Source: Corylus avellana
Lineage: Eukaryota > Streptophyta > Magnoliopsida > Fagales > Betulaceae
Direction: 5' to 3'
NCBI RefSeq assembly: GCF_901000735.1
Contig: NC_081542.1
Span: 45,052,238 to 45,116,237 of the forward strand
Length of the DNA: 64,000 bases
Notes under the pieces: model-generated
What the model was told of the DNA's origin: nothing
Seen by the model: the letters and a program-made list of their open reading frames with translations, nothing else
Database searches by the model: none
Shown here: piece after piece, positions 3,830 to 61,938 of the stretch
Layout: each line of letters starts with the position of its first letter
Position numbering within the stretch: the first letter of the stretch is position 1
Program-made: the position numbers and the translations under genes

Positions 3830-5896
3830 CAGGTTCTTCAGGTTTAAGCGCTTTACCCAATCAGGCATCTCAGAATAGGGGAGATACCGGAGCTTCAGTT
3901 TCACTAAAGAAGAAGCAGGCGATGTAGAATCCGGAGGCTTGGTAGTGTTTTCTGTCAAATCAGCTTCGCCACCGGACGTCATCTGCTTGCCATCGGACGT
4001 CATCTTCTTGTCGACGGACGTCGTCTGCTTGTCGACGGACGTCATCTCCCTGCCGTCGGGCGTCATCTGCTTGCGGTCGGGTGTCATCTTCTCAAGATCT
4101 TTCAATTCAGAACGGCCACCCTTGCCGTCGTGGGTCATCTGCTCAAGATCTTTCTCTTCAGAACGGCCGCCCTTGCCGTCGTGGGTCATCTGCTCAAGAT
4201 CTTTCTCTTCAGAACGGCCACCCTTGCCGCCGGGCGTCTTCTGCTCAAGATTTTTCTCTTCAGAACGGCCACTCTCGCCGTCTTTTTTGTGAATATCTGA
4301 CCATGCTACTGATAACGACACGAGTTTTTCAAATTTGGATAAAGAATTCAGCTCTTTAGCTAGGAATTCTTTGTCCGTACACATTGCGTCTACATTTACG
4401 CTCAACTTGTTTAAAGATTTCAGTTTCGGCGCCAAATCAGCCAGGTTGCAGAAACCCCGTCCAGTTTTCCCAGTAATCTTCCTTTCTTTGGCATGTCTCC
4501 CAATGCAAAACCCACGAAGGACTTGGAGTTTTGAAAGCTTGGCAAGTCCAGCAGGCATGTGGCTAATGAAGTTACACCCAGACAAGTCTAACCGTGTCAG
4601 GTTTGTCAGTGAGCCTATCCCTTCTGGAAGTTTCTCCAAATATTGACAGCCATGGAGGTCCACGATGATTAGCTTGGTGAGTTTGCAAATTTCATCTGGA
4701 AGCTCCCTAACCCTAGTGATTCCCCTGAGGCTCAAGTATCGAAGATGTTTCATTTTCTTCAAACCTCTCAAGAATTCGGTATCAAATACTTCAACAGCGT
4801 CAGCCTGCTTAACCTGATCCAGAAATCTACCCAATTGAAGAACTCTCATATTCGTCATCTCTGACAGACTGTGCTCTCTTAAATCAACATAAGGCTCATT
4901 TACGTTAAACAGAGTTCCAACATTCTCCTGCTTCAGACGGAAGCCATAAGTCAACTCCCGAAGTTCTGAAGATCCTTCTTCAGTTGTTACTAGGAAACCC
5001 CTCTTATTCTTCTTGTCAGAGAAATCTGCAGTTGGATTTCCATTTGTGTGAAAGCGAATGAAATTGTTTGTTTCCGCAAGCTGAATCACAGCGTACCGAA
5101 TTAACGGGTGCATTTTGCAAAGTTCTGAGCTTGGTCTGCGCTTTTTGGAAACGCTCTCAATGATGCCTTTGGCGATAAATTCTGCGAACAAATTGTTGCC
5201 CTTCTCCTCGGCAGTCTTATCTCCACAAGTCTGGGAGGATAACAACTTCTCGCCGACCCACCAGTGGACCAATGCTTTCCTCTTAATGACCGCGTTCTGA
5301 GGGAACACTGAGAAACAGAGCAAACAGCTCTGCTTCGATTCATCTTTTAGACCATCGTAGACCACCTGAATCTCCTTGAGAATCGAGCTCTCAGCGATCA
5401 TATTTCGGAAGTCTAGCTTTAACTTCTTAGCGAAGCGGGAAGGTTTGACGCTTCTAGACTCCAAATTACCTGAAGAGAATCCGTTGGTTAACATTGAGAC
5501 AACATTCCAGGCTCCTTCAAGCCTTTCTTCTAGAATTTCGATTCCCCTGCAATTTTCTGGTGCTTCTGTTCTTTCTTTGAAGGCATCGTCCAAATTTTTG
5601 AGAATCAAATCTTTGAACTCTTTGTTGACTTTGTCTTCCCATTCCTTTAGTGTCCCACAGGCATTTTCCATGTCAGTGAGTTTCTTCTCGATTTTGTCAA
5701 ACCTTTCTTGTAGACCACTGTCCTCCTTTTGGGTAGAATTAAGAAGGTGTTGCTTTCTCTTGGATAATTGGCCTAGAAACTGCGGGATGACGAAATCAAT
5801 GAATATATGGAACGGCGTGGTTCGCCCAGATTTCAAGAATGAAAGAAGATCCAAATGCTCAAATGAAGAATTTGGAGAGCTGGATTGTTTCGACAT
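3830..5896 (-). CDS. Winged-helix LRR protein, NLR-like without P-loop (LRR1, 3' end in gap)
   Basis: Probable immune-receptor fragment: the regulatory and recognition half of an NLR. About 689 codons are visible before the gap. Residues 1-50 form a conserved start containing TTPFHIFIDF and are followed by a charged, probably coiled-coil stretch to about 130. Residues 179-219 look like a winged helix, with an RNBS-D-like motif SCLLCFSVFPQN. Residues 262-264 read MHP where NLRs have MHD. From about 340 onward there are leucine-rich repeats. No Walker A or B motif is present. A tandem-repeat insert (3975-4290) lies between LRR blocks. The start is the first ATG and is shared by all four paralogs. 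It appears to be a single exon. The 22 residues that an open frame reads beyond the gap (3659-3729) are flank, not protein. The nearest annotation would be RPP13-like protein 4 or the Arabidopsis At5g45510 group (from memory). Confidence 0.85.
3975..4079. repeat. Coding minisatellite, 21 bp x 5
   Basis: Five 21-bp units beginning GACGTC or GGCGTC at 3975, 3996, 4017, 4038 and 4059. On the minus strand they encode seven-residue units of the type KQMTSDG. The second LRR gene has four such units at 22599-22682; the third and fourth have none. Confidence 0.9.
4110..4262. repeat. Coding minisatellite, 51 bp x 3 (plus partial units)
   Basis: Units start GAACGGCC at 4110, 4161, 4212 and 4263, exactly 51 bp apart. 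They encode a 17-residue unit of the type EKDLEQMTHDGKGGRSE. The expansion is absent from the other three LRR genes, which keep at most one unit. Confidence 0.92.
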
Positions 5897-6149
5897 GGTT
5901 GATTAACAAGAAGGAATTAATGACACAATATTAATCCGAGTAAATGAATGAAATAGTGAGGCAACGTAAAACCTCAGATTGACAAGAAAGAATGGAACAA
6001 TACAATGAAATGGAGTGAAGAAATGAGCCAATTACAACCTTTGCTTGACACCAGAGGTTGAAGAGAAAAATGCGCCAGGAAGCGTATGATCATGCTGCAG
6101 GACTAAAGAGAATTAGGAAGAAAGAAAACTTTCACTTAATTGTGGCTGC

Positions 6150-6156
6150 TTTTATA
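6150..6156 (-). promoter_or_regulatory. Possible TATA box of LRR1
   Basis: TATAAAA on the minus strand, 254 bp upstream of the ATG at 5896. The aligned position upstream of LRR2 (near 24596) reads TCTAAAA, so the box is not conserved there. Placement by sequence only. Confidence 0.35.
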
Positions 6157-6995: not shown

Positions 6996-7117
6996 AAAAT
7001 TTACATAAAATGTGATTAATAGAGAGATAACAATATGATAGAAGTTAGAAGGAATTAAATTTTTGTACCGCCAACGTACATTAAATTCTCTAGCATTTTT
7101 TATTCTCATTTATTTTT

Positions 7118-7217
7118 NNNNNNNNNNNNNNNNNNNNNNNNNNNNNNNNNNNNNNNNNNNNNNNNNNNNNNNNNNNNNNNNNNNNNNNNNNNNNNNNNNN
7201 NNNNNNNNNNNNNNNNN
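7118..7217. other. Assembly gap (100 N)
   Basis: Exactly 100 N. The left side ends in the leader-repeat type of sequence seen at 25240-25260. Confidence 0.99.
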
Positions 7218-9609: not shown

Positions 9610-10416
9610 ATGGCGCCAAAAAAAGGGAAGCCTAGTGCAGCTTCAAATGAGACAAGTGGCGCACAGCCGGAAGGATGTCACCGGTGCAGCTCTCGGTCCG
9701 TTGATGAATCTAAGGTTCATGGGTTTGAGGAAGAATGGATGTCACTGAAAAAGGTGCTTCTCAGGCAAGGAAGTGAGGATCGTTTCAAGGCAATAGGCAT
9801 CACCGGTATAACTGGTATAGGAAAAACCACACTTTGCCAATTGTTGTTCAATAAAAAGGAGGTGAAGGACTACTTCTTTACAAGGATCTGGGTATGCATG
9901 TCAGCACATTCCGGCAACGATCCGGACAAAAAAATAGCGATCCTGAAGAGAATGTTGGATAGCCTTGGAGTAGAAGAGGAGATGATCAACAACTACAAGG
10001 TCGGCCAGGAACATAATCTGAAGCAACTACTACTGTATGCTCTGCACCTGGAATTGCAGGGGAAGAGATATTTGATTGTGTTCGATGATGCCAGGGGCGG
10101 GGAGATAGACAAATGGTACGGAGAGCTGAGTTGTTCGTCTACTCGTGATGGAAAATGGGATGGTCTCGCGAATGGATTGCCGAAAGGGCGTGGGGAAGCA
10201 GTTATTGTGACCAGTAGGGATGAGAAATTAGCGAAAAGGATGGTTGGCGTGGAGGGAATCCTACATCGGCTTCTACCCCGTCCGGACGAAGAGAGCTGTT
10301 TGTCCATATTCAAAGATGCAGCTGATGCGGCCAAGAAAAAGTATGAGTCAGAGGCGGACGATCTAAAGAAAGATATCTTCCATAAGTCTGCAGGCATTCC
10401 ATTAGCTGCAAATTGA
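9610..10416 (+). CDS. NB-ARC nucleotide-binding half protein (NB1), slightly truncated
   Basis: Encodes 268 residues of an NB-ARC ATPase core without CC/TIR, winged helix or LRR. Visible motifs are Walker A GITGIGKT at residues 66-73, RNBS-A around RIWVCMS (92-98), Walker B RYLIVFDD (153-160), RNBS-B VIVTSR (198-203) with the sensor Arg, an RNBS-C-like stretch near 219-235, and GIPLAA (262-267) in the GLPL position. It should bind and exchange ATP/ADP in the cytosol. A base change or loss after GIPLAA gives a stop, so it lacks the last ten residues found in NB2 and NB3. The ATG sits in a good context (AGGATGG). Its end overlaps, in antisense, a spurious extension of the broken DUF4220 gene next to it. 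Confidence 0.85.
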   Translation: MAPKKGKPSAASNETSGAQPEGCHRCSSRSVDESKVHGFEEEWMSLKKVLLRQGSEDRFKAIGITGITGIGKTTLCQLLFNKKEVKDYFFTRIWVCMSAHSGNDPDKKIAILKRMLDSLGVEEEMINNYKVGQEHNLKQLLLYALHLELQGKRYLIVFDDARGGEIDKWYGELSCSSTRDGKWDGLANGLPKGRGEAVIVTSRDEKLAKRMVGVEGILHRLLPRPDEESCLSIFKDAADAAKKKYESEADDLKKDIFHKSAGIPLAAN

Positions 10417-10489: not shown

Positions 10490-12268
10490 AACTGGCCTGA
10501 ATTTCGTTTCCACTTCGAGGATTTGTTTACAAGCTTGAAATTTATTCGATATATATCTCCTGCCAAAGAATCTCTTGGCTTCTGCACAAGTGTCTAGGAG
10601 GACTATCTGCCAATTGCCCAACACTGGCGTCATCACAACAGGCTTCATGACAAGAAGATAAAACATATAATCTGAAAGTAGTTTGCATAATTTTCTACTA
10701 TTGTCATCAGCACTAGGTTTGATTTCGGTTTCCTGCAGAAAGCAGAGTTCGGTAGCCAAGTGCCAGAGGAGAAGGCTTTCCGCGTATTGATACTCCACGA
10801 TGCTCCATTTTAGCTTGAAATAGATAGCGCTAGAAGTCTGCAGAAGAGCCCAATCACCTCTTTGTGAACATGCATCCATGGCAGCTCTTAAGTTGTTTGC
10901 AGTTAGGGATTTCATTCTCAGCTGATCGAAAATGAACCCCTTGAGATCTTCCCTGACCGTCTGTGAATGTGAAAAACGCAAGATTATCATCTTCTCTAGA
11001 ATTTTCCCAGCACCCACATAACCAGCCAAAGTGTACATCCAATTTGGAGGATCATTCAAGCAATAGCTTATCATATCCTACTGGGAAACAGATCTAGACC
11101 ACCTTCTTCTTTTCAGAAGGATTGCTGGAATGAATTTTCTCCAGCTACTCTTCAAGGCAATGAGGGTCCTGTTAGAAAAAATAAGCATCAACACCGATAT
11201 GGCCTCGAGGGCTAATGTCCCAATGAGCAAGGCATAAGTAAGTCTGGCATCGAACTTGTTCCGAAACACAAACGGCTTCTCAATTGAAACCACCATTAAT
11301 GTTGCTAGGATTGAAATGAAGCTAACAAAGCGGAGCATGTAGCCAGTTTGGCAACGAACAACATTAATCTTGGTGTGGAGAACCTCGTACATGAAATTAA
11401 GCTCACACTCTATTAGTCTGAATGCGTCAGTGGCAGTTCTAGTGAGAATAAAATCTCGGCTCAATTCTCTCTCTTTTGAGCTCAAAAGGAGGCCTACAAT
11501 AAGCCCCTTGAAGATTTCAAAGAGGCGAGATGCTTCTTCCAGTAATTGCATGTCGTCTAACCCGATCGGGTTTCCAAAGGGCTTCAAACACTTTTCTTCA
11601 CTTGTGGACAGAGAATCCATAGGATTCCCAGCATCCGAGGTTTGCATCACCTCCACATGTGATGGAACCTGGACCGACCTCATAGAAGAGTATATCTCAA
11701 TGGCTTCTTCATAGTCAGGCCCAGGATTTGGCTCCAGCAACACTGAACCCCCGAATTGGCTCAAGCTCGCAAGATACAGGGCACGCGTCCGCTCTGCATA
11801 CTTGATAGTTCCCACAGCAAACACCATTGTAGTGGGAATCCATAGCTTGCTTTGATCTGAAAGCGACTGATAGAAGATATAAGCAGTTGCCAGAACCTGC
11901 AATATGAGACCAATCAAGTGCCTCAGCCAAAACTCATTATCCTCAAGAGAAAACGAAGTAATGGTATCGGGGCCGCCAAGATGCAACAAAAGAAAGGAAG
12001 CCCAGAATGCAGTGAGATCCTCTTTCCCTTTTGGTTTACAAGCGTCTTCTTGGCTTTTGGAGATGAGCCCAATGGAGAAGACAGCAATCCAGTCGCCAAG
12101 CAAGTATGCCAGCCATATGAACACGAGAAGCAATTTGCTCCTCGTCCGTTTCCTGAAGTGCGACGCTAAAACTAAAAGTGCCTGGAGCAAGAGGCTTAGG
12201 ATAATACAGACCCGGAAATTCCATGCCTCCCATAGCCTCTGGACATTGTTGGCGATAGGGAGTTCCAT
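10490..12268 (-). pseudogene. DUF4220/DUF594 membrane protein gene 1a, broken
   Basis: Starts at 12268 (MELPIANN...) and has the DUF4220 membrane segments, then much of the DUF594 region. Two lesions are visible. First, the codon for a conserved Tyr (SISQYD in paralogs) is TAG at 11078-11080, so translation stops after 396 residues; the frame continues directly after it. Second, homology to the intact genes ends near 10490, where the sequence jumps into the 3' flank of NB1. This removes the C-terminal ~125 residues with the most conserved DUF594 block. A frame runs on to 10310, but its last ~60 residues are antisense NB1 sequence. It could still make a truncated membrane protein. Confidence 0.75.
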
Positions 12269-15221: not shown

Positions 15222-17995
15222 TCAGTGACAACAATTAAATTTTGAAAACTCTTTGCATCTGGACGTAGGCTCAGCGGGATCATGCACTGCAGCCGCATTG
15301 TTGTTTTCATTTTGAGGATTGTCATCAATTTTGATACCAGTTTGGCGTTCATGCTCGTAGAACTGTGTTCCCAAGCCAAGGTGATTCATCAGAAGCCAAA
15401 CGAATGTCAAGAGTTCTCCACCCCTACTTGGTTGCTGTGCATGCACATTTGGTAAACACTTGATGGCAGCATAAGACATCAATTCCATCCAAACTCTGCT
15501 CATTACCATCCATTTGTCCACATCCAATTTCTTTAGCTGTTTTGCGAGGATGCATGCATCAAATAACACAGATTTGCTTTTGCTATTACCCTTCACAACA
15601 GCTTGTCTGAAATTGGATGTTTTCACAGCTAAGACTTCGCGACAGCCTTCAGGTTGCCCCGATTTTTTTATTTTTTTTTCCCTGAAGAATCTTTTGGCTT
15701 CTGCACAAGTGTCCTGGAAGGCTATTTGCCAATTGCCCAACACCGGGGCCATCAATGCAGGCTGCATAACAACAAGATGAAACATATAATCCGAAAGTTG
15801 TTTGCATATTTCTTTATCATGATTAGGCTGATTCTCATTACAAGATTCGGGAGGCTTTTTGTCAGGTTGTTCCTCCTGATAGAGTAGTTCGGTAGCCAAG
15901 TGCCAAAGCATAAGGCTTTCTGCGTATTCATACGCGTCGATGCTCCACTTTAGTTTGAAACTGCTAGAAGTCTGCATAAGAGCCCAGTCACCTCTTTGTG
16001 AACATGCCTCCATGGCAGCTTTTAAATCGTTTGCAGTCAAAGATTTCATCCTCAGCTGCTCGAAAATAAACTTCTTCAGATCTTCAGTGACCACCAATGT
16101 ACGTGAAAAAAGCAAGATGCAAATCTTGTCTAGAATTTCCCCAAGGTGGACGAAATCATTAGCAAACTTGGACAACCATTCTGCAGGACCTTTCAAGCAA
16201 TGGCTTATCATATCATACTGGGAAATGGACCTAGACCACCTTTCTGTCCTCAAAACGAAAAATGCAATGCGTTTGCTCCACTCATGCGTCAGGGCAATGG
16301 TGGTCCAGTCACAAAAAATAAGCATCAGAAGAGTTACCGCCTCGAAGGCTAACGCCCCGAAGAGCAAGGCGTAAGAAAGCTTGATATCGAACTCCTTTTC
16401 AAACAAATGCTTCTTCTCAATTGAACGGAAAGCCAGGAATGCACCCAGGAGTGAAGAAATGCCAATAAAGCGGAAGATGTACCCAACTCGGCAACGAACC
16501 ACAACCACCTTGGTGTGGAGAAGATCATAGATGAAATTAAGCTCATACGCTATTATCTTGAATGCCTGTCTTGCATTTATACTAAGGAAAAATTGCCGGC
16601 TCCATTCTCGGTCTTTTGAGCTCAAAAGGTAGCCCACAATAAGTCCCTTGAATTTTTTAAAGAGGCGATGTGCTACTTTTAGTAATTTTATTTTGGAATC
16701 CCAATCCATTTTTTCATGTGGGGAAACCTCAGGATACTTAATCTCCGGTACCTCTCTCCTACTCTGTTAGAATATTATAAATTAAATAATTAAATTAATT
16801 AACTTTTTAAATAGATAAAATTACACTTTACTCCCTCAAAGTTTGAACTCGAACATCTTTAATTTGATTTATAATGTTTCAATTTTTAATTACAATGCAC
16901 CCATCAAAGTTTTAAATTTTTTCAATGTAGCCAATTCGTTAACTATTTCCGTCAAATTTAATTGAAAATTGATCACATGCCAGACACTTGTATTTTTTTG
17001 TCTTAAATTTTTAAAAATGCCCCCAACTAAAACCTATATATATAAATTGGTGGCTTGGCCACCTCAAATGGCCAAAGAGCAACCCGAATTTTTTTTTTTT
17101 TTTAATAAAAAATAAAATTATAGGAGCAATTTAATATTTTTTTACAATTTTCGTTAGAGAAGACGGTTATGGCTAATGGATATGCCACATTTAAATGTTT
17201 TTAACTTTAGTGGGGTACATTATAAAAATTAAAACATTACAGGTCAAATTAAAAATTAACTCAAACTTTGAGAGTAAAATATGATTTTACCTTTTAAATA
17301 AATAACAATTTAATATAGTATTATAATAAAATAAAATATAAATTAAATAATTAAGTTTGGTAGAGAACCTGTAAATCAACGGTGCCCTTTTTCACCGCCG
17401 CTTCATATTGAGGCCCGGGGTCTGCATTTGGCAATACTGAACGACCAAAACGGACCAAGCTTGAGAGATAGAGAGCACGCGTCCGCTCCGCGTACTTGAT
17501 AGTTCCGGCAACAAACACCAATGCCGTGGGAATCCACAGCTTATTATGCTTCGGAAACGTTTGATAGAAGATGTAAGAAGTGCTGAGAAGCTGAACAACG
17601 AGCCCCGTGAAGTGCCTAAACCAGAACTGATTATCCTCAATGGCATAAGAAGTAATTGTATCGGGGCCTCCAAGATGGAGCAAAAGAAAGGAAGCCCAGA
17701 ATGCCATGAACTCCGCTTCATGGCTCCCTTCCTTGGGCGGTTTATGATCTCTCGCATCGTCACCTTTGTTTTTGGTGATTAGTCCGATGGCAACGGCGGC
17801 GATCCAGTCACAAAGCAAGTATGCCATCCAAACGCTCGCGTGTATCAGTTTCCGTCTGGTCCGTTTTCTCCAGGGCGATAACAAAAGTAAAGATGCCTGC
17901 ATGCCGAGGCTCAAGGCAATACAGCCCCGGAGATTCCAGGATTGCCATACCCTCTTGAAGCCGTCGAGGAGGACGTTGAACACATATCCTGACAT
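15222..17995 (-). CDS. DUF4220/DUF594 multi-pass membrane protein 1b, two exons
   Basis: Predicted membrane protein of unknown biochemical role, about 722 residues. Exon 1 is 17369-17995 and exon 2 is 15222-16763. The phase-0 intron 16764-17368 has a GT donor (CAG/GTTCTC) and AG acceptor (AACAG/AGT) and keeps the frame. Exon 1 carries hydrophobic segments around the motifs WNLRGC, YLLCDW and HLGGPDTITSY. Exon 2 holds two more membrane spans, then the soluble half ending in the DUF594 signature GGELLTFVWLLMNHLGLG. The tail ends in FNCCH. I chose ATG 17995 (MSGYVFNVLL) because it aligns with the start of the gene at 53838; an in-frame ATG at 18070 would add 25 residues. The intron contains a 478-bp MITE, and the paralogs have no intron here. 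Confidence 0.8.
16814..17291. mobile_element. Mutator-type MITE inside the DUF4220-1b intron
   Basis: Perfect 9-bp duplication TTTTAAATA at 16805-16813 and 17292-17300. The ends GATAAAATTACACTTTACTC and (inverse) GGTAAAATCATATTTTACTC are imperfect inverted repeats. The 9-bp TSD fits Mutator-like elements. An 18-bp direct repeat (TATAAATTAAATAATTAA) lies just outside it at 16776-16793 and 17337-17354. Confidence 0.85.
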
Positions 17996-18835
17996 ATTTA
18001 CTATGAATTTACCTGGATGTGCTTTTGAATCCAAGATTGTCAAGTTTATATATAAAAGCAATATATACATGTAGAGTCACATGACTCACGTTATTGGTGA
18101 ATAAATCTCACGTAGAATCTTCATTTGGAGGATCTTGTAAATTTTCAATGGATTCAGTTGATGTTAACTTGGATCACTACTAGCGGCTTCACTTAGAATT
18201 ATTATTTATTTTTTATTTTTAGAAGAACAAACTATTTACTTTTTTATTCGAATAAACTCCACAATAACTTTCTTTATATTTTTTATATACCATTTAAACA
18301 TTCTTTAAATTAAATGCGAGAAATGGAAAGGAAAGAAAAAGTCATTTAAACATTGTTTTAAATAGAAAAATGTTATGTGTTTTCCTCGTCATAGGTGAAA
18401 ATTATTTTATAAAAACTAAGTGAGAGAAATAAGAACAACTTTCTTTTTTATAAAATAATTTTCACATATGATTAGAAGGACAAGAAAAGAACACCATGAG
18501 AACATCTATCATTTTCCTTTTAAATATATGTTAGAAGAAAGAGAGGGGAGATAGAGATAAAGAATTTTTATATTAAAATAATGTTAAGAAAAGCAAAAGT
18601 GTTACCCTAAGTGCTCCATTGGGTTAGGTAACAGAAAGAGCTAGTCTGTTTCCGGTGATAATTTTTAAGAGTTTTCCTTACACTTAAAGGAATATAATGA
18701 GATTTAAAAAGGCTGAAGTTAGTGCTCTTATAACGTCTTTGTAATTGTATTGGGAAAAAAAAAATTATCTATAGAAAAAGTCTAAAAAATCTTTTTAGAA
18801 AAAAAAAAAAACCCTCCTCATTTTCAATCTTTTCT
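17996..18835. other. Intergenic, upstream of DUF4220-1b
   Basis: AT-rich promoter-side sequence of the minus-strand gene. No gene is visible. Around 18770 it changes to sequence that repeats the first kilobase of the window. Confidence 0.5.
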
Positions 18836-22126: not shown

Positions 22127-24331
22127 TCATTGTATCCTCCTAAACGTAATGAAATTACAAATAGATTTGAGATAATTAATGCCACCTTTAGGAGGAGAAG
22201 AAGAAGAGTCTGGTTTTTCTTCTGAAATTTCTCCTGTATCTGATTCCCCGCTTACCCACTCTCCATTCTCGTCACAGGGGAACAAAATGAGTTTAGGACA
22301 TTTGATTTTCTGCACGTACCTCAACTGTGGAAACAGTGCTTGCAGTTTCCCCCAATCCATCTGTAATTCACTCAACAACTCCAAGCGGAGAATGCTAACC
22401 TTCCACTTCTTGCATCCCACTAGCTCCTCCAGTTTAGATAGCTTTCCTCCTCTTACATAGAGCTTCTTCAGCTTCTCCAGGTTGAAGAGCTTCACCCAAT
22501 CAGGCATCTCAGGATCAGGATAAAACTGAAGCTCCAGTTTCGCTAAAGAAGCAGAACGCGATGTAGAATCCGGGGGCTTGGTAGTGTTTTCGCCACCGGA
22601 CGTCATCTGCTTGTCGACGGACGTCATCTCCCTGCCGTCGGACGTCGTCTGCTTGCTATGGGACGTCGTCTGTTTGTCACCGGGCGTCGTTGGTCCATTC
22701 ACTTTTTCTTCGGAACGGCCACCCTCGCCGTCGTTTTTGTGAATATCTGACCATGCTACTGATAACGACGCGAGGCTTTCAAATTCGGATAAAGAATTTA
22801 GCTCTTTCGCTAGGAGTCCTTTGTCCGTACACCTTTCGTCTACATTTATGCTCAACTTCGTCAAACATTTCAGCTTCCGAGCCAAAGTAGCCAGCTTGCA
22901 GAAATCCTGGCCGTCGTGCAATGCAGCTTGTGTCCCAATCCAAAACCCATGAAGGACTTGGAGTTTTAAGAGCTTGGCAAGTCCAACAGGCATGTGTCTA
23001 ATGAAGTTACACCCAGACATGTCTAACCGTGTCAGGTTTGTCAGTGAGCCTATCCCTTCTGGAAGTTTCTCTAAATATTGACAGTCATGGAGGTCCACGA
23101 TTATTAGCTTGGTGAGTTTGCAAATTGAATCAGGAAGCTCCCTAACTCTAGTGATTCCCCTGAGGCTCAAGTATCTAAGATGTTTCATTTTCTTCAAACC
23201 TTTCAAGAACTCGGTATCAAATACTTTGACAGCGTCAGCTTGCTTAACCTGGTCCTGAAATCTACCCAATTGAAGAACTCTCATATTCGTCATCTCTGAC
23301 AGACTGTGCTCTCTTAAATCGACATAAGGCTCATTTACGTTAAACAGAGTTCCAACATTCTCCTGCTTCAGACGGAAGCCATAAGTCAACTCCCGAAGTT
23401 CTGAAGATCCTTCTTCAGTTGTTACTAGGAAACCCCTCTTATTCTTCTTGTCAGAGAAATCTGCAGTTGGATTTCCATTTGTGTGAAAGCGAATGAAGTT
23501 GTTTGTTTCTGCAAGCTGAATCACAGCGTACCGAATTAACGGGTGCATTTTGCAAAGTGCTGAGCTTGGTCTGCGCTTTTTGGAAACGCTCTCAATGATG
23601 CCTTTGGCGATAAATTCTGCGAACAAATTGTTGCCCTTCTCCTCGTCAGTCTTATCTCCACAAGTCTGGGAGGATAACAACTTCTCGCCGACCCACCAGT
23701 GGACCAATGCTTTCCTCTTAATGACCACGTTCTGAGGGAACACTGAAAAACAGAGCAAACAGCTCCGCTTCGATTCATCTTCTAGACCATCGTAGACCAC
23801 CTGAATCTCCTTGAGAATCGAGCTCTCAGCGATCATATTTCGGAAGTCTAGCTTTAACTTCTTAGCGAAGCGGGAAGGTTTGACGCTTCTAGACTCCAAA
23901 TTACCTGAAGAGAATCCGTTGGTTAACATTGAGACAACATTCCAGGCTCCTTCAAGCCTTTCTTCAAGGATTTCGATTCCTCTGCAATTTTCTAGTGCTT
24001 CTGTTCTTTCTTTGAAGGCATCGTCCAAATTTTTGAGAATCAAATCTTTGAACTCTTTGTTGACTTTGTCTTCCCATTCCTTTAGTGTCCCACAGGCATT
24101 TTCCATGTCACTGAGTTTCTTCTCGATTTTGTCAAACCTTTCTTGTAGGCCACTGTCCTCCTTTTGGGTAGAATTAAGAAGGTGTTGCTTTCTCTTGGAT
24201 AATTGGCCTAGAAACTGCGGGATGACGAAATCGATGAATATATGGAACGGCGTGGTTCGCCCAGATTTCAAGAATGAAAGAAGATCCAAATGCTCAAATG
24301 AAGAATTTGGAGAGCTGGTTTGTTTGGACAT
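22127..24331 (-). CDS. Winged-helix LRR protein, NLR-like without P-loop (LRR2)
   Basis: Complete frame of 734 residues and the closest relative of LRR1. Residues 1-50 hold the conserved TTPFHIFIDF start. Residues ~50-130 are charged and helical. Residues 179-219 are the winged helix, with SCLLCFSVFPQN at 190-201. Residues 262-264 are MHP in the MHD position. LRRs run from ~340 to ~690 with a low-complexity insert at ~535-590 encoded by the 21-bp minisatellite. There is no Walker A or B motif. Its C-terminus differs from LRR3 and LRR4: they end in TEHA soon after CDENGEW, while here ~40 extra residues follow. A TEHA-stop still exists at 22084-22095 in another frame, so a small frameshift or an unseen splice is likely. 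The gene lies ~2.2 kb from NB2 and divergent to it. Confidence 0.87.
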   Translation of the reverse strand: MSKQTSSPNSSFEHLDLLSFLKSGRTTPFHIFIDFVIPQFLGQLSKRKQHLLNSTQKEDSGLQERFDKIEKKLSDMENACGTLKEWEDKVNKEFKDLILKNLDDAFKERTEALENCRGIEILEERLEGAWNVVSMLTNGFSSGNLESRSVKPSRFAKKLKLDFRNMIAESSILKEIQVVYDGLEDESKRSCLLCFSVFPQNVVIKRKALVHWWVGEKLLSSQTCGDKTDEEKGNNLFAEFIAKGIIESVSKKRRPSSALCKMHPLIRYAVIQLAETNNFIRFHTNGNPTADFSDKKNKRGFLVTTEEGSSELRELTYGFRLKQENVGTLFNVNEPYVDLREHSLSEMTNMRVLQLGRFQDQVKQADAVKVFDTEFLKGLKKMKHLRYLSLRGITRVRELPDSICKLTKLIIVDLHDCQYLEKLPEGIGSLTNLTRLDMSGCNFIRHMPVGLAKLLKLQVLHGFWIGTQAALHDGQDFCKLATLARKLKCLTKLSINVDERCTDKGLLAKELNSLSEFESLASLSVAWSDIHKNDGEGGRSEEKVNGPTTPGDKQTTSHSKQTTSDGREMTSVDKQMTSGGENTTKPPDSTSRSASLAKLELQFYPDPEMPDWVKLFNLEKLKKLYVRGGKLSKLEELVGCKKWKVSILRLELLSELQMDWGKLQALFPQLRYVQKIKCPKLILFPCDENGEWVSGESDTGEISEEKPDSSSSPPKGGINYLKSICNFITFRRIQ
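22599..22682. repeat. Coding minisatellite, 21 bp x 4
   Basis: Units beginning GACGTC at 22599, 22620, 22641 and 22662. They encode seven-residue K(Q/E)TTSDG-like units between LRR blocks. Compare five units plus a 51-bp expansion in LRR1. Confidence 0.85.
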
Positions 24332-26572: not shown

Positions 26573-27409
26573 ATGGCGCCAAAAAAAGGGAAGCCTAGTG
26601 CAGCTTCAAGTGAGACAAGTGGCGCACAGCCGGAAGGATGTCACCGGTGCAGCTCTCGGTCCGTTGATGAATCTAAGGTTCATGGGTTTGAGGAAGAATG
26701 GATGTCACTGAAAAAGGTGCTTCTCAGGCAAGGAAGTGAGGATCGTTTCAAGGCAATAGGCATCACCGGTATAACTGGTATAGGAAAAACCACACTTTGC
26801 CAATTGTTGTTCAATAAAGAGGAGGTGAAGGACTACTTCTTTCCAAGGATCTGGGTATGCATGTCAGCACATTCCGGCAACGATCCGGACAAGAAAATAG
26901 CGATCCTGAAGAGAATGTTGGATAGCCTTGGAGTAGAAGAGGAGATGATCAACAACTACAAGGTCGGCCAGGAACATAATCTCAAGCAACTACTACTGTA
27001 TGCTCTTCACCTGCAATTGCAGGGGAAGAGATATCTGATTGTGTTCGATGATGCCAGGGGCGGGGAGATAGACAAATGGTACGGAGAGCTGAGTTGTTCG
27101 TCTACTCGTGATGGAAAATGGGATGGTCTCGCGTATGGATTGCCAAAAGGGCGTGGGGGAGCAGTTATTGTGAACAGTAGGGATGAGAAATTAGCGAAAG
27201 AGATGGTTGGCGTGGAGGGAATCCTACATCGGCTTCTACCCCGTCCGGACGAAGAGAGCTGCTTGTCAATATTCAAAGACGCAGCTGATGCGGCCAAGAA
27301 AAAGTATGAGTCAGAGGCGGACGATCTAAAGAAAGATATCTTCCATAAGTCTGCAGGCATTCCATTAGCTGCAAAAATGATGGCAAAAAATCTTATTAAC
27401 ACCCAATGA
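26573..27409 (+). CDS. NB-ARC nucleotide-binding half protein (NB2)
   Basis: 278 residues. Walker A is 66-73 (GITGIGKT), RNBS-A near 92-98, Walker B RYLIVFDD 153-160, RNBS-B VIVNSR 198-203, and the GLPL-position motif GIPLAA 262-267. The protein ends only eleven residues later. The N-terminal 35 residues are polar with no CC or TIR domain. In RNBS-B residue 201 is Asn, whereas NB1 and NB3 have the usual Thr. It differs from NB3 at only two residues (103 and 201). It lacks the winged helix and LRR that a full NLR needs; those are encoded by the LRR genes nearby. Convergent to the broken DUF4220 gene 2a. Confidence 0.88.
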   Translation: MAPKKGKPSAASSETSGAQPEGCHRCSSRSVDESKVHGFEEEWMSLKKVLLRQGSEDRFKAIGITGITGIGKTTLCQLLFNKEEVKDYFFPRIWVCMSAHSGNDPDKKIAILKRMLDSLGVEEEMINNYKVGQEHNLKQLLLYALHLQLQGKRYLIVFDDARGGEIDKWYGELSCSSTRDGKWDGLAYGLPKGRGGAVIVNSRDEKLAKEMVGVEGILHRLLPRPDEESCLSIFKDAADAAKKKYESEADDLKKDIFHKSAGIPLAAKMMAKNLINTQ

Positions 27410-48024: not shown

Positions 48025-48124
48025 NNNNNNNNNNNNNNNNNNNNNNNNNNNNNNNNNNNNNNNNNNNNNNNNNNNNNNNNNNNNNNNNNNNNNNNNNNNN
48101 NNNNNNNNNNNNNNNNNNNNNNNN
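48025..48124. other. Assembly gap (100 N)
   Basis: Exactly 100 N. Directly to its right begins the segment nearly identical to 26041 onward, so the left edge of that duplication cannot be seen. Confidence 0.99.
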
Positions 48125-48651: not shown

Positions 48652-49488
48652 ATGGCGCCAAAAAAAGGGAAGCCTAGTGCAGCTTCAAGTGAGACAAGTG
48701 GCGCACAGCCGGAAGGATGTCACCGGTGCAGCTCTCGGTCCGTTGATGAATCTAAGGTTCATGGGTTTGAGGAAGAATGGATGTCACTGAAAAAGGTGCT
48801 TCTCAGGCAAGGAAGTGAGGATCGTTTCAAGGCAATAGGCATCACCGGTATAACTGGTATAGGAAAAACCACACTTTGCCAATTGTTGTTCAATAAAGAG
48901 GAGGTGAAGGACTACTTCTTTCCAAGGATCTGGGTATGCATGTCAGCACATTCCGGCGACGATCCGGACAAGAAAATAGCGATCCTGAAGAGAATGTTGG
49001 ATAGCCTTGGAGTAGAAGAGGAGATGATCAACAACTACAAGGTCGGCCAGGAACATAATCTCAAGCAACTACTACTGTATGCTCTTCACCTGCAATTGCA
49101 GGGGAAGAGATATCTGATTGTGTTCGATGATGCCAGGGGCGGGGAGATAGACAAATGGTACGGAGAGCTGAGTTGTTCGTCTACTCGTGATGGAAAATGG
49201 GATGGTCTCGCGTATGGATTGCCAAAAGGGCGTGGGGGAGCAGTTATTGTGACCAGTAGGGATGAGAAATTAGCGAAAGAGATGGTTGGCGTGGAGGGAA
49301 TCCTACATCGGCTTCTACCCCGTCCGGACGAAGAGAGCTGCTTGTCAATATTCAAAGACGCAGCTGATGCGGCCAAGAAAAAGTATGAGTCAGAGGCGGA
49401 CGATCTAAAGAAAGATATCTTCCATAAGTCTGCAGGCATTCCATTAGCTGCAAAAATGATGGCAAAAAATCTTATTAACACCCAATGA
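48652..49488 (+). CDS. NB-ARC nucleotide-binding half protein (NB3)
   Basis: 278 residues with an intact Walker A (66-73), Walker B (153-160), RNBS-B VIVTSR (198-203) and GIPLAA (262-267), ending at residue 278 just after the GLPL-type position. It differs from NB2 only at residues 103 (Asp) and 201 (Thr), and the flanks are also almost identical. It keeps the consensus Thr in RNBS-B, so of the two it is the better candidate for an active copy. Convergent to an intact DUF4220 gene 1.86 kb away. Confidence 0.88.
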   Translation: MAPKKGKPSAASSETSGAQPEGCHRCSSRSVDESKVHGFEEEWMSLKKVLLRQGSEDRFKAIGITGITGIGKTTLCQLLFNKEEVKDYFFPRIWVCMSAHSGDDPDKKIAILKRMLDSLGVEEEMINNYKVGQEHNLKQLLLYALHLQLQGKRYLIVFDDARGGEIDKWYGELSCSSTRDGKWDGLAYGLPKGRGGAVIVTSRDEKLAKEMVGVEGILHRLLPRPDEESCLSIFKDAADAAKKKYESEADDLKKDIFHKSAGIPLAAKMMAKNLINTQ

Positions 49489-51346: not shown

Positions 51347-53838
51347 TCACTTGCAACAATATTTTAATTTTGAAAACTTTATTAATCTGGACGTGCAGCC
51401 GCTTTCCTGCTTTTCTTCCTTTTCCTGGTTCTGGCTGTTTCCCTCTGTATGACCACCCTCCTGACCTTGACTAAGATCGGCCATTTTGGTTCGAATTTCG
51501 CGCTCATGCTCGTAGAACTGTGTTCCCAAGCCAAGGTGATTCATCAGTAACCAAACGAATGTCAAGAGCTCTCCACCCTTGCTGGGTTGCTGTGCGTGCA
51601 CAAGAGGTATACACTTGATGGCAGCATAAGACATCAATTCCACCCAAACTCGGCTCATCAGCATCCATTGGTCTACTTCCAAATTCCGGAGCTGTTTTGC
51701 GAGGATGCATGCATCGAAGAAGATAGATTTGCTTTTGCTTCCCTTCACTGCAACTGGTCTGAACTTGGAAGTATTCACCATTAACACTTTTTTACAGGCT
51801 TCTAATTGCTGCGATCTTTTTATTCCCTTTTGGTTGAAGAATCTCTTGGCTTCTTCACAAGTGTCCTTGAAGGCTATTTGCCAATTTCCCAATACCGGGG
51901 CCATCAATTCAGGCTGCATAACAAGAAGATAAAACATATAATGCGAAAGATTTTTGCATATTTCGCTATAATTATGTTTTCTCTCTTCACCAGATTCGGG
52001 TGTCTTTTCTTTTTCTTTTTCTTTTTCTTTTTCCCCCGGGAAACAAGATTGAGGTGTCATTTCTTCTATTTTTGGCCATGGGAAACAAGATCGAGGTGCC
52101 TTTTCTTTTTCTTGAGAGCAGCTAAGATCAGTGTGATAGAGTAGTTCGGTAGCCAAGTGCCACAGGAGAAGGCTTTCTGCGTATTGATACTCCTCGATGC
52201 TCCATTTTAGTTTGAAACACCCGGAAGTCTGCATAAGAGCCCAATCACCCCTTTGCGAACATGCCTCCATGGCAGCTTTTAAATTGTTTGCAGTCAAAGA
52301 TTTCATCCTCAGCTGGTTGAAAATAAAGTCCTCCAGATCTTCACTGACCGCGTATGGATGACGCGAGAAAAGAAAGATGTTAATCTTGTCTAGCACTCCC
52401 CCAAGCCGCACTTTAGTAGCGAACCGGGAAAACCATGGAGGAGGAACTTTCAAGCAATAGCTTATCATGTCATACCTGTTAAAATCAATGATTAAGTGAT
52501 TAAATTTACTTCTTCGTATCAGTTTAAACTTTTGAGATAACCAGCGATTTAACATATATTGGCATGAAAGCCAAAGGTCTAACCCGTTATTTAACAATAC
52601 CTGGAAATGGACCTCGACCACCTTTGTCTCTTCAAAATGATTTTTGCAATGAATCTGGTCCACCCGAAGTTGTTGGCAATGAGGGTCCAGTCAGAAAAAA
52701 TAAGCATGAGAAGAGTTACGGCCTCGAAGCCTAACGCCCCACCGAGCAAGGCGTAAGAAAGATTGACATCGAAGTATTTATCATCCCCGTAGTACTGCTT
52801 CTCAATTGAACGGAAGAGCATGAATGCAACCAGGATTGTAGAAAAGCTAATAAAGCGGAAGAAATACCCAATTTGGGTTCGAGCCACAACAACCTTGGTG
52901 TGGAGAAGATCGTACATGAAATTAAGCTCATACGCTATTAGCCTGAATGCCTCATTTGCATTTCTTGTAAGAAAATATTGTCGGCTCAATTCTCGGTCTT
53001 TTGAGCTCAAAAGATACCCCACAATAAGACCCTTGAAGCTTTCGAAGAGGCGATGTGCTTCTTGTAGTAATTTAATGTCGGCTTCCAACAGCGAACTTTG
53101 TTCCTTTTGATGATCAGTAGTACCGGTGGAGTTGGAATCCTTGTTGGGAGGCGCAATCTCCAGGGTCGGTATAACCTCCGCGTGTGTCGGAACCTGGATC
53201 AAATTCAAGGAAGAGTATATGGTGACGGCCTCTTCATAATCAGGCCCGGGGTCCGCCCCTCGCAACACCGAGCTCCCAAAATGGCCGGAGCTTGCAAGAT
53301 AGAGAGAACGCGTCCGCTCTGCGTACTTGATAGTTCCCGCAACAAACACCATGACAGTTGGTAACCATAGATCATGAAATGTAGGGAACGTTTGGTAGAA
53401 GATATAAGAAGTGCTGACAAGCTGAACAACGAGCCCCGTGAGGTGCCTAAACCAGAACTGATTATCCTCAACCGCGAAAGAAGTAATTGTATCAGGGCCG
53501 CCAAGATGCAGCAAAAGAAAGGAAGCCCAGAAAGCCATGAAGGCCTCACTCCCTTCCTTCATCTTCCCTTGCATCTTCAGCTCCATCTTCTGCTCACGAG
53601 CATCGCCTTTGCTTTTGGTGATTAGTCCAATGGCAACGGCGGCGATCCAGTCACATAGCAAGTACGCCACCCATACGCCCCCGTGTACCAATTTCTTTCT
53701 CGACCGTTTTCTGAATGGCGCTAAGATGAGCAAAGATGCCTGCAGGAAGAGGCTTAAGAGAATACAGCCCCGGAGATTCCATGAATGCCATATCCTCTTC
53801 AAGCCGCCGAGGATGGCCTTCGCTACAGATCCGGGCAT
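51347..53838 (-). CDS. DUF4220/DUF594 multi-pass membrane protein 3, two exons
   Basis: Exon 1 is 52601-53838 and exon 2 is 51347-52475. The 125-bp intron 52476-52600 has the donor CAG/GTATTG and acceptor ACAG/GTATGA. Joining restores the SISRYDMISY motif and gives about 788 residues. Likely spans lie near 25-42, 56-74, 100-115 and 132-150, with two more around the YFFRFISFSTIL and SYALLGGALGFEA motifs. The C-terminal half ends in the DUF594 signature GGELLTFVWLLMNHLGLG and a tail finishing KYCCK. A Glu/Lys/Pro stretch with two SCFPWPK-like units sits before the HNYSEICKNLSHYMF motif. The start MPGSVAKAIL is the first ATG. Role unknown. Confidence 0.87.
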
Positions 53839-55289
53839 ATTTACTTACTCTCCCTCTGTCTCCTTATTTCCTGATGATCACCTTTATATATATATATATG
53901 CATGATTGTTGAATTTGCATGGATGTGCTTTTAAATCCATGATTGTTAAGTCTATATATATAACAAGTTAATGGAGAATAAATCTCACGTAGAAACTTCA
54001 TTTCAAGCTGTAAATTAGGAGTAATGTTAGAATAAGAGTATTGTTTGCATTCTGCACAATATGATTTCATTTTTTAAAATTATTATTAAATTTGTAATCA
54101 TCATTATTAAATTTTAATTTATTAATAATTTTAAAAATCATGTCGGTGGACAAATGTAATTGTTTCTTCAACCTGCATGGTTTAGAGCAAGAAAATATCC
54201 AAATTAAACGAAAGAACTTAATGATGATGGCACCTGCAGGGTTGACGTACACAATATGAGGTGGCGAATCAAGAGGTTAAACTTGATCCTTAAAGTGAAG
54301 ACTGGAAACAATCTTTAAAAAAGAAAGCGAAGAATGTAACAAAAAATCTCCATTTAGTGGAATGCATGGGTGAAAGGCACGTTTCAATAAACATCTTGAA
54401 CCGTGATAGAAGGAAGTACTTTTTCTTTTTCTTTTCTAACTTTGGAACTTAATTATATTTCCATGAACAAACAAAAATAACCGGTGTACGAAAGACCCTG
54501 TTCCATGTGTTGAGAAATAGTCTTATATTTTTTGTATACAAGATTTTGGACGTGTTTATAAGGAATAGACAACTCTCTTTTATAGAATCGGTTTTATGAG
54601 TTGAGTTAGGCTCATGAATTTCTTCATAGTATCAAAGCTTACCACATAATGAATGGGAGCTCACACTATTTACCATGTGAAAAGGACCAAAAAAATAACC
54701 GGCATGTGAGAGAGGGTGTTGAGAAATAGACACGTACACATTGCCTGTGAATAAGATCTTAGGCATGTTTACAAGGAATGAATAACTCTCTCTTATAGAA
54801 CCAATTTTATAAGCTGAGTTAGGCTCACAAATGTATTCACCACGAATATATAAAGTAAACTCTCCGCTTTCTTTTTCTCTTTCTCTTTTTCCTTCTCTGT
54901 TTCTTTAATAAGAAGATAAACATAAAAAAGGAAATTTGACTCAACCAAAAAAAAAAAAAAACTAACGTACGTATGATATCTAGAAGGAACCGAAATTTGT
55001 GTACTACCAAGCCAAGTATAATGCTCTCATGCATTCCTGCTCTAGAAGCCGAGACAATCTTTTTTGCTGAAGTCGCCCCTGCATTGTTTCTTTTTGTGGT
55101 ACTTTTTAAAACCGAGACTATCTTTTAATAATGGCTTTACCACATGTATTAAAAATACATTTAACTATATTAGAGCATTTATAATGGAATAACCAAATTT
55201 TTATGCAAAATGGCTCCTCAAAACTCACTTTATCTAGTTTAGCTAATAAATTTTTAAAGGCGTCCTATACTTCATAAGCTATATTTTTA

Positions 55290-59235: not shown

Positions 59236-59940
59236 TATAGCAGCACCTCTCTTTCTTGTCACTTAGGGAGTTTGTGAATGGGGCCCGCGAGGTTGGTAAA
59301 TAGTGGTTATTACGCCCGGTAATTGTCTTATAATCCAATGAAAGAGTAAAGAAGAACAAGACAAACTTTTTATGAATATGACTCCTGCTCTCATTAAGGA
59401 AATGGTCCGAGTAACCCCGCTATTTGGTCTCTTGTTCTGAGGAGTACTTCTTCGAGTACTGCTTGAAGAAGTCCTCAGAATTCAGAAACATTGCATGTTG
59501 ATCAACACATATTTTAGCAATAAAATTATACATCAAATATAGAAGTCCACGCAAATTACAGAAAAAGATGCAACTGTAGTAGTTTTATCATGATTTCGAA
59601 CAAATTAAACGTACATGCAATAATTATTATAAAAAAAAAAATAAAAAAAAAAAGCTTGAATTTCTTGGTGGGTCGATTGAAATGAACATCGCCAAAGATA
59701 ATGAAGCATTAAAGCTCGCTACAATATATTTCTTTTTTCATCAGAGTGTACGTTCCCAGTTTCGAAAATAAGAAATGGCTGATAATATATATTGAACAAA
59801 CATTTCATCTCAGATTTATTATCGTTTTGTAGAGAATACATGCATTGCAGGAGCACAGAATTCAAATAAGGAAATTACGTACTACTTATTATGGATAGAA
59901 ATTAAGATGCAATAAATTAAAGGATTTTCATAGGAATAGT
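59236..59940. other. Intergenic, 3' flank of LRR4
   Basis: No gene. From about 59790 the sequence (ATTGAACAAACATTTCATCT, TATCGTTTTGTAGAG) matches the presumed 3' UTR of LRR2 and LRR3. Confidence 0.5.
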
Positions 59941-61938
59941 TTATGCATGCTCTGTTTCTTCTTCCCCGCTTGCCCACTCCCCATTCTCGTCACACGGGAA
60001 CAAAATGAGTTTAGGACATTTTGCCTTCTGCACGTATTTCAAGTCTGGAAACAGTGCTCGCAGTTTCCGCCAATCCATCTGCAATTCACTCAACGACAGC
60101 AAGCGGAGAATGCTGACCTTCCATTTCTCGCACCCCACTGGATGCAGCTGAGACAGCTTTCCTCCCCTTACATAGAGCTTCTGCAGCTTCTCCAGGTTGA
60201 AGAGCTTCACCCAATGAGGCATCTCAGGATCAGGGAGAAACTGAAGCTCCAGTTTCGCTAAAGAAGCTGCATGCTTGGTAGATTCCGGATGCTTGGTAGT
60301 TTTGCGTCCACTGGACGTCGACCACTTAGGAGCTGTCCCTTCGGAACCGCCAGCCTCGCCGTCGTTTTTGTGAATATCTGACCATGCTACTAATAACGAC
60401 ACGAGCTTTTCAAATTCGGATAAAGAATTCAGCTCTTCCGCTAGGAGTTTTTTGTCCGTACACCTTGCGTCTACATTTATGCTCAACTTCTTCAAATATT
60501 TCAGCTTCCGCGCCAAAGTAGCGAGCGTGCAGAAATCCGGAGTAATCGTCCTTTCTTTGGCTTGTCTCCCAATCCAAAATCCATGAAGGACTTGGAGTTT
60601 TGAGAGCTTAGAAAGTCCAACAGGCATGTGGCTAATCAAGTAACACCCAGACATGTCAAGCCATGTCAGGTTTGTCAATGAGCCTATCTCCTCTGGAAGT
60701 CTCTCTAAATAATGACAGCCATGGAGGTCCACGATGACTAGATTGGTGAGTTTGCAAATTGAATCTGGAAGCACCGTAACTCTAGTGATTCCCCTGAGGC
60801 TCAGGTATCTAAGATTTTTCATTTTCTTCAAACCTTTGATCAAGAACTCGGTATCATCTACTTCGACAACCTTCTTAGTCAAGTCCGCATAATATCTACC
60901 CAATCGAAGAACTTTCATGTTCCTCATCTTTGAGAAACTGTCCTCTCTTAAATCAACGTAAGGCTCGTTTACGTTGAACAGAGTTTCAACATTCTCCTCC
61001 TTCAGACGGAAGCCATAAGTCAACTCCCGAAGTGACGAATATCCTTCTTCGGTTATTACCAGGCACCCCCTCTTAATCTTCTTGTCAGAGAAATCTGCAG
61101 TTGGATTTCCATTTGGGTGAAACCCAATGAAGTTTTTTGTTTCGGCAAGCCGAATTACAGCGTACCGAATTAACGGGTGCATCCTGCAAAGCTCCAAGCT
61201 TCGTCTGCGCTTTTTGGAAACGCGCTCGATGATGCCTGTGTCGATAAATTCTTGGAACAAATCGTTGCCCTTCTCCTCGTCAGTCTGGCAGGATAAGAAC
61301 CCCTCGCCGACCCACCAGTGGACCAATGCTTTCTTCTTGATGATCGAGTTCTGAGAGAACACTGAAAAACAGAGCAAACAATTCTGCTTCCATTCATGAT
61401 CTTTTAGACCATTGTAGACCTGCAGAATCTCCTGGAAAGTTGAGCTCTCAGACATCATGTTTTCGATGTTTAGCTCTAACTTCTTCGCAAATCGGGAAGG
61501 TTTGACGCTTCTAGACCCCAACTTATCTGGAGAGACTTCTTTGATTGAAGAGAATCGGCTGTTTAACATTGAGACAACTTTCCAGGCTGTGTTAACCGTA
61601 TCTACAAAGCATTCGTTTTTGCTGAAATTTTCTGCTGCTTCTGTTCTTTCTTTGAAGGTAAAGTCCAAATTTTGGAGAATCAAATCTTTGAACTCTTTGT
61701 TGACGTCGTCTTCCAATTCCCTTAGTATCACACAGGCATTTTCCATTTCAATCAGTTTCTTCTCGATTTCGTCCTTTTTGCCAGAACTAAGCTGTTGCTT
61801 TCTCTTGGATAATTGCTCTACAAACTGCGGCATGATGAAATCGATGAATATATGGAAGGGCGTCGATGGCCCAGATTTCGAGTATGAAAGAAGATCCAAA
61901 GGCTGAAATGAAGAATCTGGAGGGGATTTTTTCGACAT
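59941..61938 (-). CDS. Winged-helix LRR protein, NLR-like without P-loop (LRR4)
   Basis: 665 residues, single exon. Shares the N-terminal STPFHIFIDFIMPQF block, the winged helix (NCLLCFSVFSQN), RMHPLIRYAV in the MHD position, an LRR array and the end CDENGEW...TEHA. The linker after the N-terminal block is shorter than in LRR1-3. The insert between LRR blocks is a short Ser/Thr/Lys run without tandem repeats. No P-loop. No NB or DUF4220 gene lies within the next 2 kb upstream, where the window ends. It is the most diverged of the four. Confidence 0.88.
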   Translation of the reverse strand: MSKKSPPDSSFQPLDLLSYSKSGPSTPFHIFIDFIMPQFVEQLSKRKQQLSSGKKDEIEKKLIEMENACVILRELEDDVNKEFKDLILQNLDFTFKERTEAAENFSKNECFVDTVNTAWKVVSMLNSRFSSIKEVSPDKLGSRSVKPSRFAKKLELNIENMMSESSTFQEILQVYNGLKDHEWKQNCLLCFSVFSQNSIIKKKALVHWWVGEGFLSCQTDEEKGNDLFQEFIDTGIIERVSKKRRRSLELCRMHPLIRYAVIRLAETKNFIGFHPNGNPTADFSDKKIKRGCLVITEEGYSSLRELTYGFRLKEENVETLFNVNEPYVDLREDSFSKMRNMKVLRLGRYYADLTKKVVEVDDTEFLIKGLKKMKNLRYLSLRGITRVTVLPDSICKLTNLVIVDLHGCHYLERLPEEIGSLTNLTWLDMSGCYLISHMPVGLSKLSKLQVLHGFWIGRQAKERTITPDFCTLATLARKLKYLKKLSINVDARCTDKKLLAEELNSLSEFEKLVSLLVAWSDIHKNDGEAGGSEGTAPKWSTSSGRKTTKHPESTKHAASLAKLELQFLPDPEMPHWVKLFNLEKLQKLYVRGGKLSQLHPVGCEKWKVSILRLLSLSELQMDWRKLRALFPDLKYVQKAKCPKLILFPCDENGEWASGEEETEHA

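What the first reader, a model, noticed from the sequence alone, without database searches (positions are those of the whole stretch)
3830..61938. A split NLR: P-loop half and winged-helix/LRR half encoded by separate, interleaved gene families
Seen: the NB proteins contain Walker A, RNBS-A, Walker B, RNBS-B and a GLPL-type motif and stop 1-11 residues after it. The LRR proteins contain RNBS-D and an MHD-like motif plus LRRs and have no P-loop. Together they make one NB-ARC-LRR with no missing and no doubled motif. The cut falls between ARC1 and the winged helix. Both halves recur as intact frames in several copies, which argues against random decay. Known: NLR activity depends on contacts between the nucleotide pocket and the MHD motif, so the halves would have to assemble in trans. 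Inferred: a two-part receptor. From memory, Arabidopsis has the same kinds of genes together near At5g45440-At5g45540.
Basis: partly seen in the sequence, partly recalled or inferred. Interest (0 to 1): 0.85.

Follow-up and report, generated by a model that had tools for sequence, protein, structure and literature searches.

The report
ZAR1-like immune receptor in two genes
In hazelnut and other eudicot plants, an immune receptor related to ZAR1 seems to have been cut into two neighbouring genes, one for the nucleotide switch and one for its lid and sensor; whether the two proteins work as one receptor is not yet tested.

Summary
The window (hazelnut chromosome 2, inferred) has three NB genes (+) interleaved, head to head, with four winged-helix/LRR genes (-), plus DUF4220/DUF594 genes. 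Predicted structures tile ZAR1 without overlap: NB3 covers 150-373, LRR4 378-847. The cut is no local accident: 47 of 48 aligned NB sequences end 14-70 residues after GLPL; none of the 120 LRR relatives listed (of 647) shows NB-ARC. Both halves have hits on one contig in 19 of 30 named species (hand count). The LRR half is sister to ZAR1 (100/99). The NB half joins ZAR1 only weakly (58/3) and ties structurally with NRCs, but its relatives' coiled coil resembles ZAR1's.

Corrections: 'MHD' is MHP; D is absent in 50 of 50, H kept in 28. NB1-3 lack the coiled coil of full relatives. The LRR half has its own N-terminal helical domain, with dN>dS in five of six pairs, clear in one or two. A ZAR1-like receptor split into a linked pair is my best reading; assembly in trans is plausible, not shown. 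The halves may act apart.

The parts
9610..10416 (+). NB1: NB-ARC half (P-loop to GLPL), 268 aa, ended early by an in-frame stop
26573..27409 (+). NB2: NB-ARC half, 278 aa
48652..49488 (+). NB3: NB-ARC half, 278 aa; AlphaFold model tiles ZAR1 150-373
48847..48870 (+). P-loop of NB3 (residues 66-73); G66, G69, G71, K72 in 48 of 48 aligned sequences
49435..49446 (+). GLPL-type motif of NB3 (residues 262-265, GIPL); the chain ends 14 residues after the Pro
3659..5896 (-). LRR1: winged-helix/LRR half; holds a 100-N run (3730-3829), so its C-terminal end is uncertain
22127..24331 (-). LRR2: winged-helix/LRR half, 734 aa
42012..44123 (-). LRR3: winged-helix/LRR half, 703 aa
59941..61938 (-). LRR4: winged-helix/LRR half, 665 aa; AlphaFold model residues 150-658 tile ZAR1 378-847
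61513..61899 (-). N-terminal helical domain of LRR4 (residues 14-142), no detectable likeness to coiled coils; dN>dS against LRR3
61168..61362 (-). winged-helix domain of LRR4 (residues 193-257, PF23559)
61174..61182 (-). MHP, at the place of the MHD motif (residues 253-255)
33693..36335 (-). DUF4220/DUF594 gene in one open frame, the third family of the repeated unit (880 aa)
11078..12268 (-). DUF4220 frame, companion gene beside NB1 (tblastn match to the family runs on to 10484)
15222..18070 (-). second DUF4220/DUF594 gene, in two frames
51347..53844 (-). DUF4220/DUF594 gene beside NB3, in two frames

Best explanation
A ZAR1-like coiled-coil NLR was split in an ancestor of the eudicots that carry both halves, between the GLPL helix and the last stretch before the winged helix. 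One product (coiled coil + nucleotide-binding domain + most of HD1) keeps the nucleotide switch. The other (a new N-terminal helical domain + winged helix + LRR) keeps the lid and sensor. The two often stayed neighbours, in hazelnut together with a DUF4220/DUF594 protein. Most likely the WHD-LRR protein docks on the NB protein in trans, as the same domains do in cis in ZAR1, holds it off and lets it go on activation. Shown: complementary halves, a conserved break, linkage in many genera, ZAR1 kinship of the LRR half, invariant P-loop. Inferred: common origin of the NB half, physical binding, regulation, output. In hazelnut the CC-less NB1-3 are probably regulatory or decoy switch halves; the CC-bearing neighbours outside the window are the better candidates for signalling.
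Confidence: 0.45

Rival explanations
1. The halves act apart. The NB family is a CC-NB (CN) signalling or regulatory module like TN proteins, pairing with full-length NLRs. The WHD-LRR family is an independent scaffold whose N-terminal helical domain does the work. Linkage is historical.
For: Degenerate MHD. Own N-terminal domain on the LRR half with dN>dS for LRR3/LRR4 (0.300 against 0.124; bootstrap P(dN<=dS) 0.000) and LRR2/LRR4 (P 0.017). TN10 is reported to associate with the TIR domains of two clustered, head-to-head TNLs (PMC8069298, abstract).
Against: The NB half stops just where the WHD-LRR half begins, and that end is kept in 47 of 48 aligned sequences; WHD-LRR relatives sit beside NB relatives in several genera.
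Confidence: 0.3
2. The WHD-LRR protein mainly partners with the DUF4220/DUF594 membrane-type protein of the same unit, with the NB half as a third or accessory member.
For: DUF4220 matches lie in all three units. In Malus two protein clusters carry a whole DUF4220-DUF594 protein followed by a whole LRR half.
Against: In Malus the LRR half keeps its own start Met after the junction, so the join may be two adjacent same-strand genes merged by annotation. Of the DUF4220 copies here only 33693-36335 is one open frame.
Confidence: 0.15
3. A decaying NLR cluster: fragments of full-length NLRs without function.
For: NB1 has an early stop, DUF4220 copies are broken, a retrotransposon-like frame lies beside one NB copy outside the window.
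Against: The same two architectures recur in many eudicot genera; invariant P-loop; dN/dS below 1 over the NB domain in 34 of the 35 hazelnut pairs with a finite value (exception L017/L018, 1.09; L012/L015 is 0.95; NB2/NB3 has no value).
Confidence: 0.04
4. One full-length NLR is made by splicing across the loci.
For: None found.
Against: NB genes lie on the + strand and LRR genes on the - strand; relatives of each half are listed as separate proteins.
Confidence: 0.01

Closest known systems
ZAR1 (HOPZ-ACTIVATED RESISTANCE 1; PDB 6j5t, named RPP13-like protein 4)
   Same: Best PDB match of both halves by sequence, and of the LRR half by structure; LRR half sister to it; coiled coil of full NB relatives resembles its coiled coil; RWS stretch before the P-loop in 53 of 120 NB relatives
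   Different: ZAR1 is one chain with IHD at the MHD place; here two chains, MHP, and a new N-terminal domain on the LRR half. ZAR1's W825, which I recall as part of the RKS1 interface, is aligned with K in LRR4 (alignment)
At5g45490 / At5g45440 / At4g19060 NB family of Arabidopsis
   Same: Database names of the NB relatives. At4g19060 is listed as NB only (PMC8116057, passage, which lists At5g45490 as CNL), At5g45490 as CN (PMC2175511, passage); PMC4008172 (passage) lists both as NBS with 1 in what I take as the exon column
   Different: The window copies lack the N-terminal coiled coil; the passages seen do not pair them with a WHD-LRR half
At5g45510 and proteins named RPP13-like protein 4 without NB-ARC
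   Same: RPP13-like protein 4 is the database name of many WHD-LRR relatives; At5g45510 is called a divergent NL and is induced by salicylic acid like At5g45490 (PMC2175511, passage)
   Different: I did not align At5g45510 itself here; its place in this family is recalled
Head-to-head NLR pairs (RPS4/RRS1 recalled) and the TN10-TNL40/TNL60 cluster
   Same: Divergent linked genes whose products cooperate or associate
   Different: There at least one partner is a full-length NLR; here neither is
Artificially split Rx and Bs2
   Same: Domain interaction and intramolecular complementation, by titles in the reference lists of PMC3782705 and PMC3801107 (passages); details recalled
   Different: Made in the laboratory; here the split is in the genome and shared by many genera

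Membership tests
Canonical plant CC-NLR | Coiled coil, whole NB-ARC and LRR in one chain | tested here: not met
   NB-ARC stops at profile 197-203 of 248 in NB1-3, and LRR1-4 have no NB-ARC
Canonical plant CC-NLR | P-loop, Walker B, RNBS-B and GLPL | tested here: met
   NB half: G66, G69, G71, K72, G262, P264 in 48 of 48; D159 in 46, R203 in 47
Canonical plant CC-NLR | MHD motif | tested here: not met
   LRR half: M in 50 of 50, H in 28, D in 0
ZAR1 lineage | Phylogenetic placement of the WHD-LRR half with ZAR1 | tested here: met
   100/99; WHD alone 95/92; rows were 26 hazelnut NLRs and 16 family members
ZAR1 lineage | Phylogenetic placement of the NB half with ZAR1 | tested here: inconclusive
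   Best careful tree joins them at 58/3 inside a 99/99 group; the quick tree does not
ZAR1 lineage | Partnership with ZRK/RLCK-XII kinases | not testable with these tools
   Needs binding assays; W825 is not kept in LRR4 (role recalled)
Head-to-head NLR pair | Divergent linked genes | tested here: met
   LRR1/NB1, LRR2/NB2, LRR3/NB3 start 2.2-4.5 kb apart on opposite strands
Head-to-head NLR pair | Cooperation of the products | not tested
   No interaction or phenotype data
At5g45490-like NB family | Coiled coil + NB-ARC ending soon after GLPL | tested here: inconclusive
   Ending is met; no coiled coil in NB1-3. Neighbours L012-L015, L017 and L018 have the coiled coil; L012-L015 have a long repeat tail after GLPL

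The most novel reading that the evidence does not exclude
A two-component resistosome widespread in eudicots: a ZAR1-like receptor split in its STAND ATPase module, so that a detachable WHD-LRR lid, bearing its own fast-evolving N-terminal domain and controlling nucleotide state without a canonical MHD, regulates a separate CC-NB executor and possibly tethers it through a DUF4220 membrane protein.
Probability: 0.3. Interest if true: 0.9.

Novelty: new variant of a known kind. Interest (0 to 1): 0.68.

Why it matters
If the halves assemble, plants would have a natural experiment in splitting an NLR inside its switch. Lid release could then be measured as dissociation of two proteins, and the roles of MHD, nucleotide and LRR could be separated genetically. 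It would also give a function to annotated but unexplained gene families found here in many eudicot genera and, by the names of the relatives, in Arabidopsis.

Tried and rejected
Random decay was rejected: both architectures recur in many genera. Splicing across loci was rejected: opposite strands. A local truncation of a longer NB-ARC was rejected: relatives also stop soon after GLPL. I first thought that long open frames of neighbours (553-587 codons) might hold the missing winged helix; they hold a coiled coil in front and a QQLPEGAAPNGS-type repeat behind GLPL. N-terminal domain of the LRR half as a second coiled coil: not supported (hhalign probability 0.5-7.6). It was not folded or searched alone, and the structural hits barely cover it, so no claim on its fold. 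Literature: the listings of searches over open-licence PMC papers showed no title or abstract that I recognised as describing this pair as a split NLR; most subscription papers are not held there. Adachi 2023 on ZAR1, Moffett 2002 and Leister 2005 are not held. The commentary PMC10533319 was read whole. Of PMC8069298 I saw the abstract and section list; of the other papers cited, passages.

Rows dropped: of 42 hazelnut NLR loci, 4 (L031, L035, L050, L055) gave no open frame over 500 aa with a P-loop, leaving 38. L040-L042 were left out of the careful NB tree as long branches. 12 NLRs were left out of the careful LRR tree as long or near-duplicate. Family members were chosen by hand for spread: 20 NB rows; 20 LRR rows, 16; 48 rows in A3 and 50 in A4, each with 2 rows of the window. 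The 120 listed NB relatives include one protein of the window, the 128 LRR relatives (together) three.
Full report
What is there. The window is G000:C2:45052238-45116237. Three NB genes on the + strand alternate with four WHD-LRR genes on the - strand and with DUF4220/DUF594 genes on the - strand. Each NB gene starts 2.2-4.5 kb from the start of an LRR gene on the other strand: head-to-head pairs in a unit LRR-NB-DUF4220, present three times, followed by LRR4. NB2 and NB3 lie in a block of 2.57 kb at 98% identity, so at least this part is recent. The array goes on downstream: of the 14 best matches to NB3 in the genome, three are the window's, nine lie on the same contig between 45.12 and 45.35 Mb (two of these close together, probably pieces of one copy), and two partial ones lie on C3 and C4. 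The twelve on C2 are all on the + strand.

Complementarity. Pfam, PDB sequence search and structure comparison agree. AlphaFold models have mean pLDDT 82.7 (NB3, 48 sequences) and 79.0 (LRR4, 50 sequences). The top VIA row of each is the ZAR1 resistosome chain 6j5t_C: 150-373 for NB3 and 378-847 for LRR4. For LRR4 ZAR1 stands clear (29.0 and 28.7, then NRC2 25.9); for NB3 it is tied with NRC4, NRC2 and NRC3 (18.4-18.7), so the NB fold alone does not single out ZAR1.

The break is conserved. In 48 aligned NB sequences (2 of the window, 46 chosen from 120 listed) the chain ends 14-70 residues after the GLPL proline in 47 and 138 after it in one. In 33 of the 48 there are 158-198 residues before the P-loop, room for the coiled coil; NB2 and NB3 have 65. 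Similar short forms in Carpinus (P0003) and in an unnamed source (P0002) show that this CC-less form is not unique to one genome. The listing of NB relatives is limited by length (at most 1.75 times 278 aa), so it could not have shown fused receptors. The LRR search could, and none of its 120 listed rows carries PF00931. Three Walker-A-like strings among 128 LRR relatives are chance matches by their surroundings.

Linkage. Counting by hand named species have contig-bearing hits for both halves. In 19, hazelnut among them, an NB and an LRR hit share a contig length, which I read as one contig. In 11 they do not (Prunus dulcis, P. armeniaca, P. mume, Malus, Pyrus communis, Ziziphus from two assemblies, Actinidia chinensis, Quercus lobata, Q. 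suber, Fragaria, Castanea sativa). Where locus tags of one series can be compared (10 species), 8 have NB and LRR within five tag steps, taking steps of 100 in P. persica and 10 in P. speciosa as one gene; Liquidambar and Fragaria do not. An unnamed contig of 6,677 bp holds one of each (P0056, P0183). The species with near tags span Lamiales, Malpighiales, Ericales, Rosales and Fagales (orders recalled).

Ancestry. Hazelnut has two ZAR1 orthologs, L001 and L002 (identified by likeness to ZAR1). The WHD-LRR half is their sister in three trees. The NB half is one clade (100/100) inside a group of ZAR1 and other CNLs (99/99). Its join with ZAR1 has support 58/3 in the careful tree and is absent in the quick tree. 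Two other signs favour ZAR1: the coiled coil (probability 94 against 55 for the set of the 36 other NLRs; a set of ZAR1 and nine others gives 93) and the RWS stretch, found in 2 of 38 NLRs (the ZAR1 pair) and 53 of 120 NB relatives. The window's NB3 itself has RCS there. One split event is likely but not proven; two separate losses from ZAR1-like duplicates would look alike.

How it may work. The P-loop lysine is invariant (48 of 48), so nucleotide binding is probably kept. Of 83 NB relatives with at least 130 residues before the P-loop, 63 have a recognised alpha1-like start, and in 40 of these the eleventh residue is acidic; ZAR1's E11 as channel residue is recalled. The WHD is under purifying selection between LRR3 and LRR4 (dN 0.081, dS 0.232) while the N-terminal helical domain shows the reverse (dN 0.300, dS 0.124; bootstrap P(dN<=dS) 0.000 of 2000). 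LRR2/LRR4 gives P 0.017, three pairs 0.076-0.087, LRR1/LRR2 the opposite (0.990). These six pairs are not independent, and gene conversion could lower dS. The picture is a conserved lid with a fast-evolving new domain. Against a canonical lock stands the loss of the MHD aspartate in all 50 aligned LRR halves and of the histidine in 22. If the halves meet, the off state must be held by other contacts.

Known context. Arabidopsis NB members of this family have been hard to classify: three of them changed group between NB-ARC and CC-NB-ARC trees (PMC6312357, passage), and NLRtracker did not report AT4G19060 and AT5G45440, which Resistify did (PMC11752215, passage).

Judgement. The split itself, its spread over eudicot genera and its linkage are well supported; the two-part receptor is the most economical reading but untested. 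I put trans assembly at a little under one half, separate function at about a third.

Noticed in passing
61513-61899 (LRR4) and the same part of LRR1-LRR3: The N-terminal helical domain of the WHD-LRR half has dN above dS in five of six pairs, clearly in LRR3/LRR4; the winged helix has dN below dS in all six.
   Followed up: partly
P0180 and P0181 (Malus domestica): A whole DUF4220-DUF594 protein followed by a whole WHD-LRR half in one protein record; real fusion or merged gene models.
   Followed up: partly
L012-L015, behind GLPL: NB genes downstream of the window end in a long repeat of QQLPEGAAPNGS type, roughly 150-220 residues.
   Followed up: no
290-389, 3730-3829, 7118-7217, 48025-48124: Runs of exactly 100 N, probably assembly gaps; one lies inside LRR1 and one 527 bases before NB3.
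   Followed up: no
29067-30573: A decayed DUF4220/DUF594 copy in several frames, in a stretch 93.5% alike to the copy beside NB3.
   Followed up: no
7580-8973: Tandem units built of inverted CACGTCAG...CTGACGTG motifs.
   Followed up: no
L016 (C2:45266689-45270312): A truncated NB copy followed by a retrotransposon-like frame (by eye).
   Followed up: no
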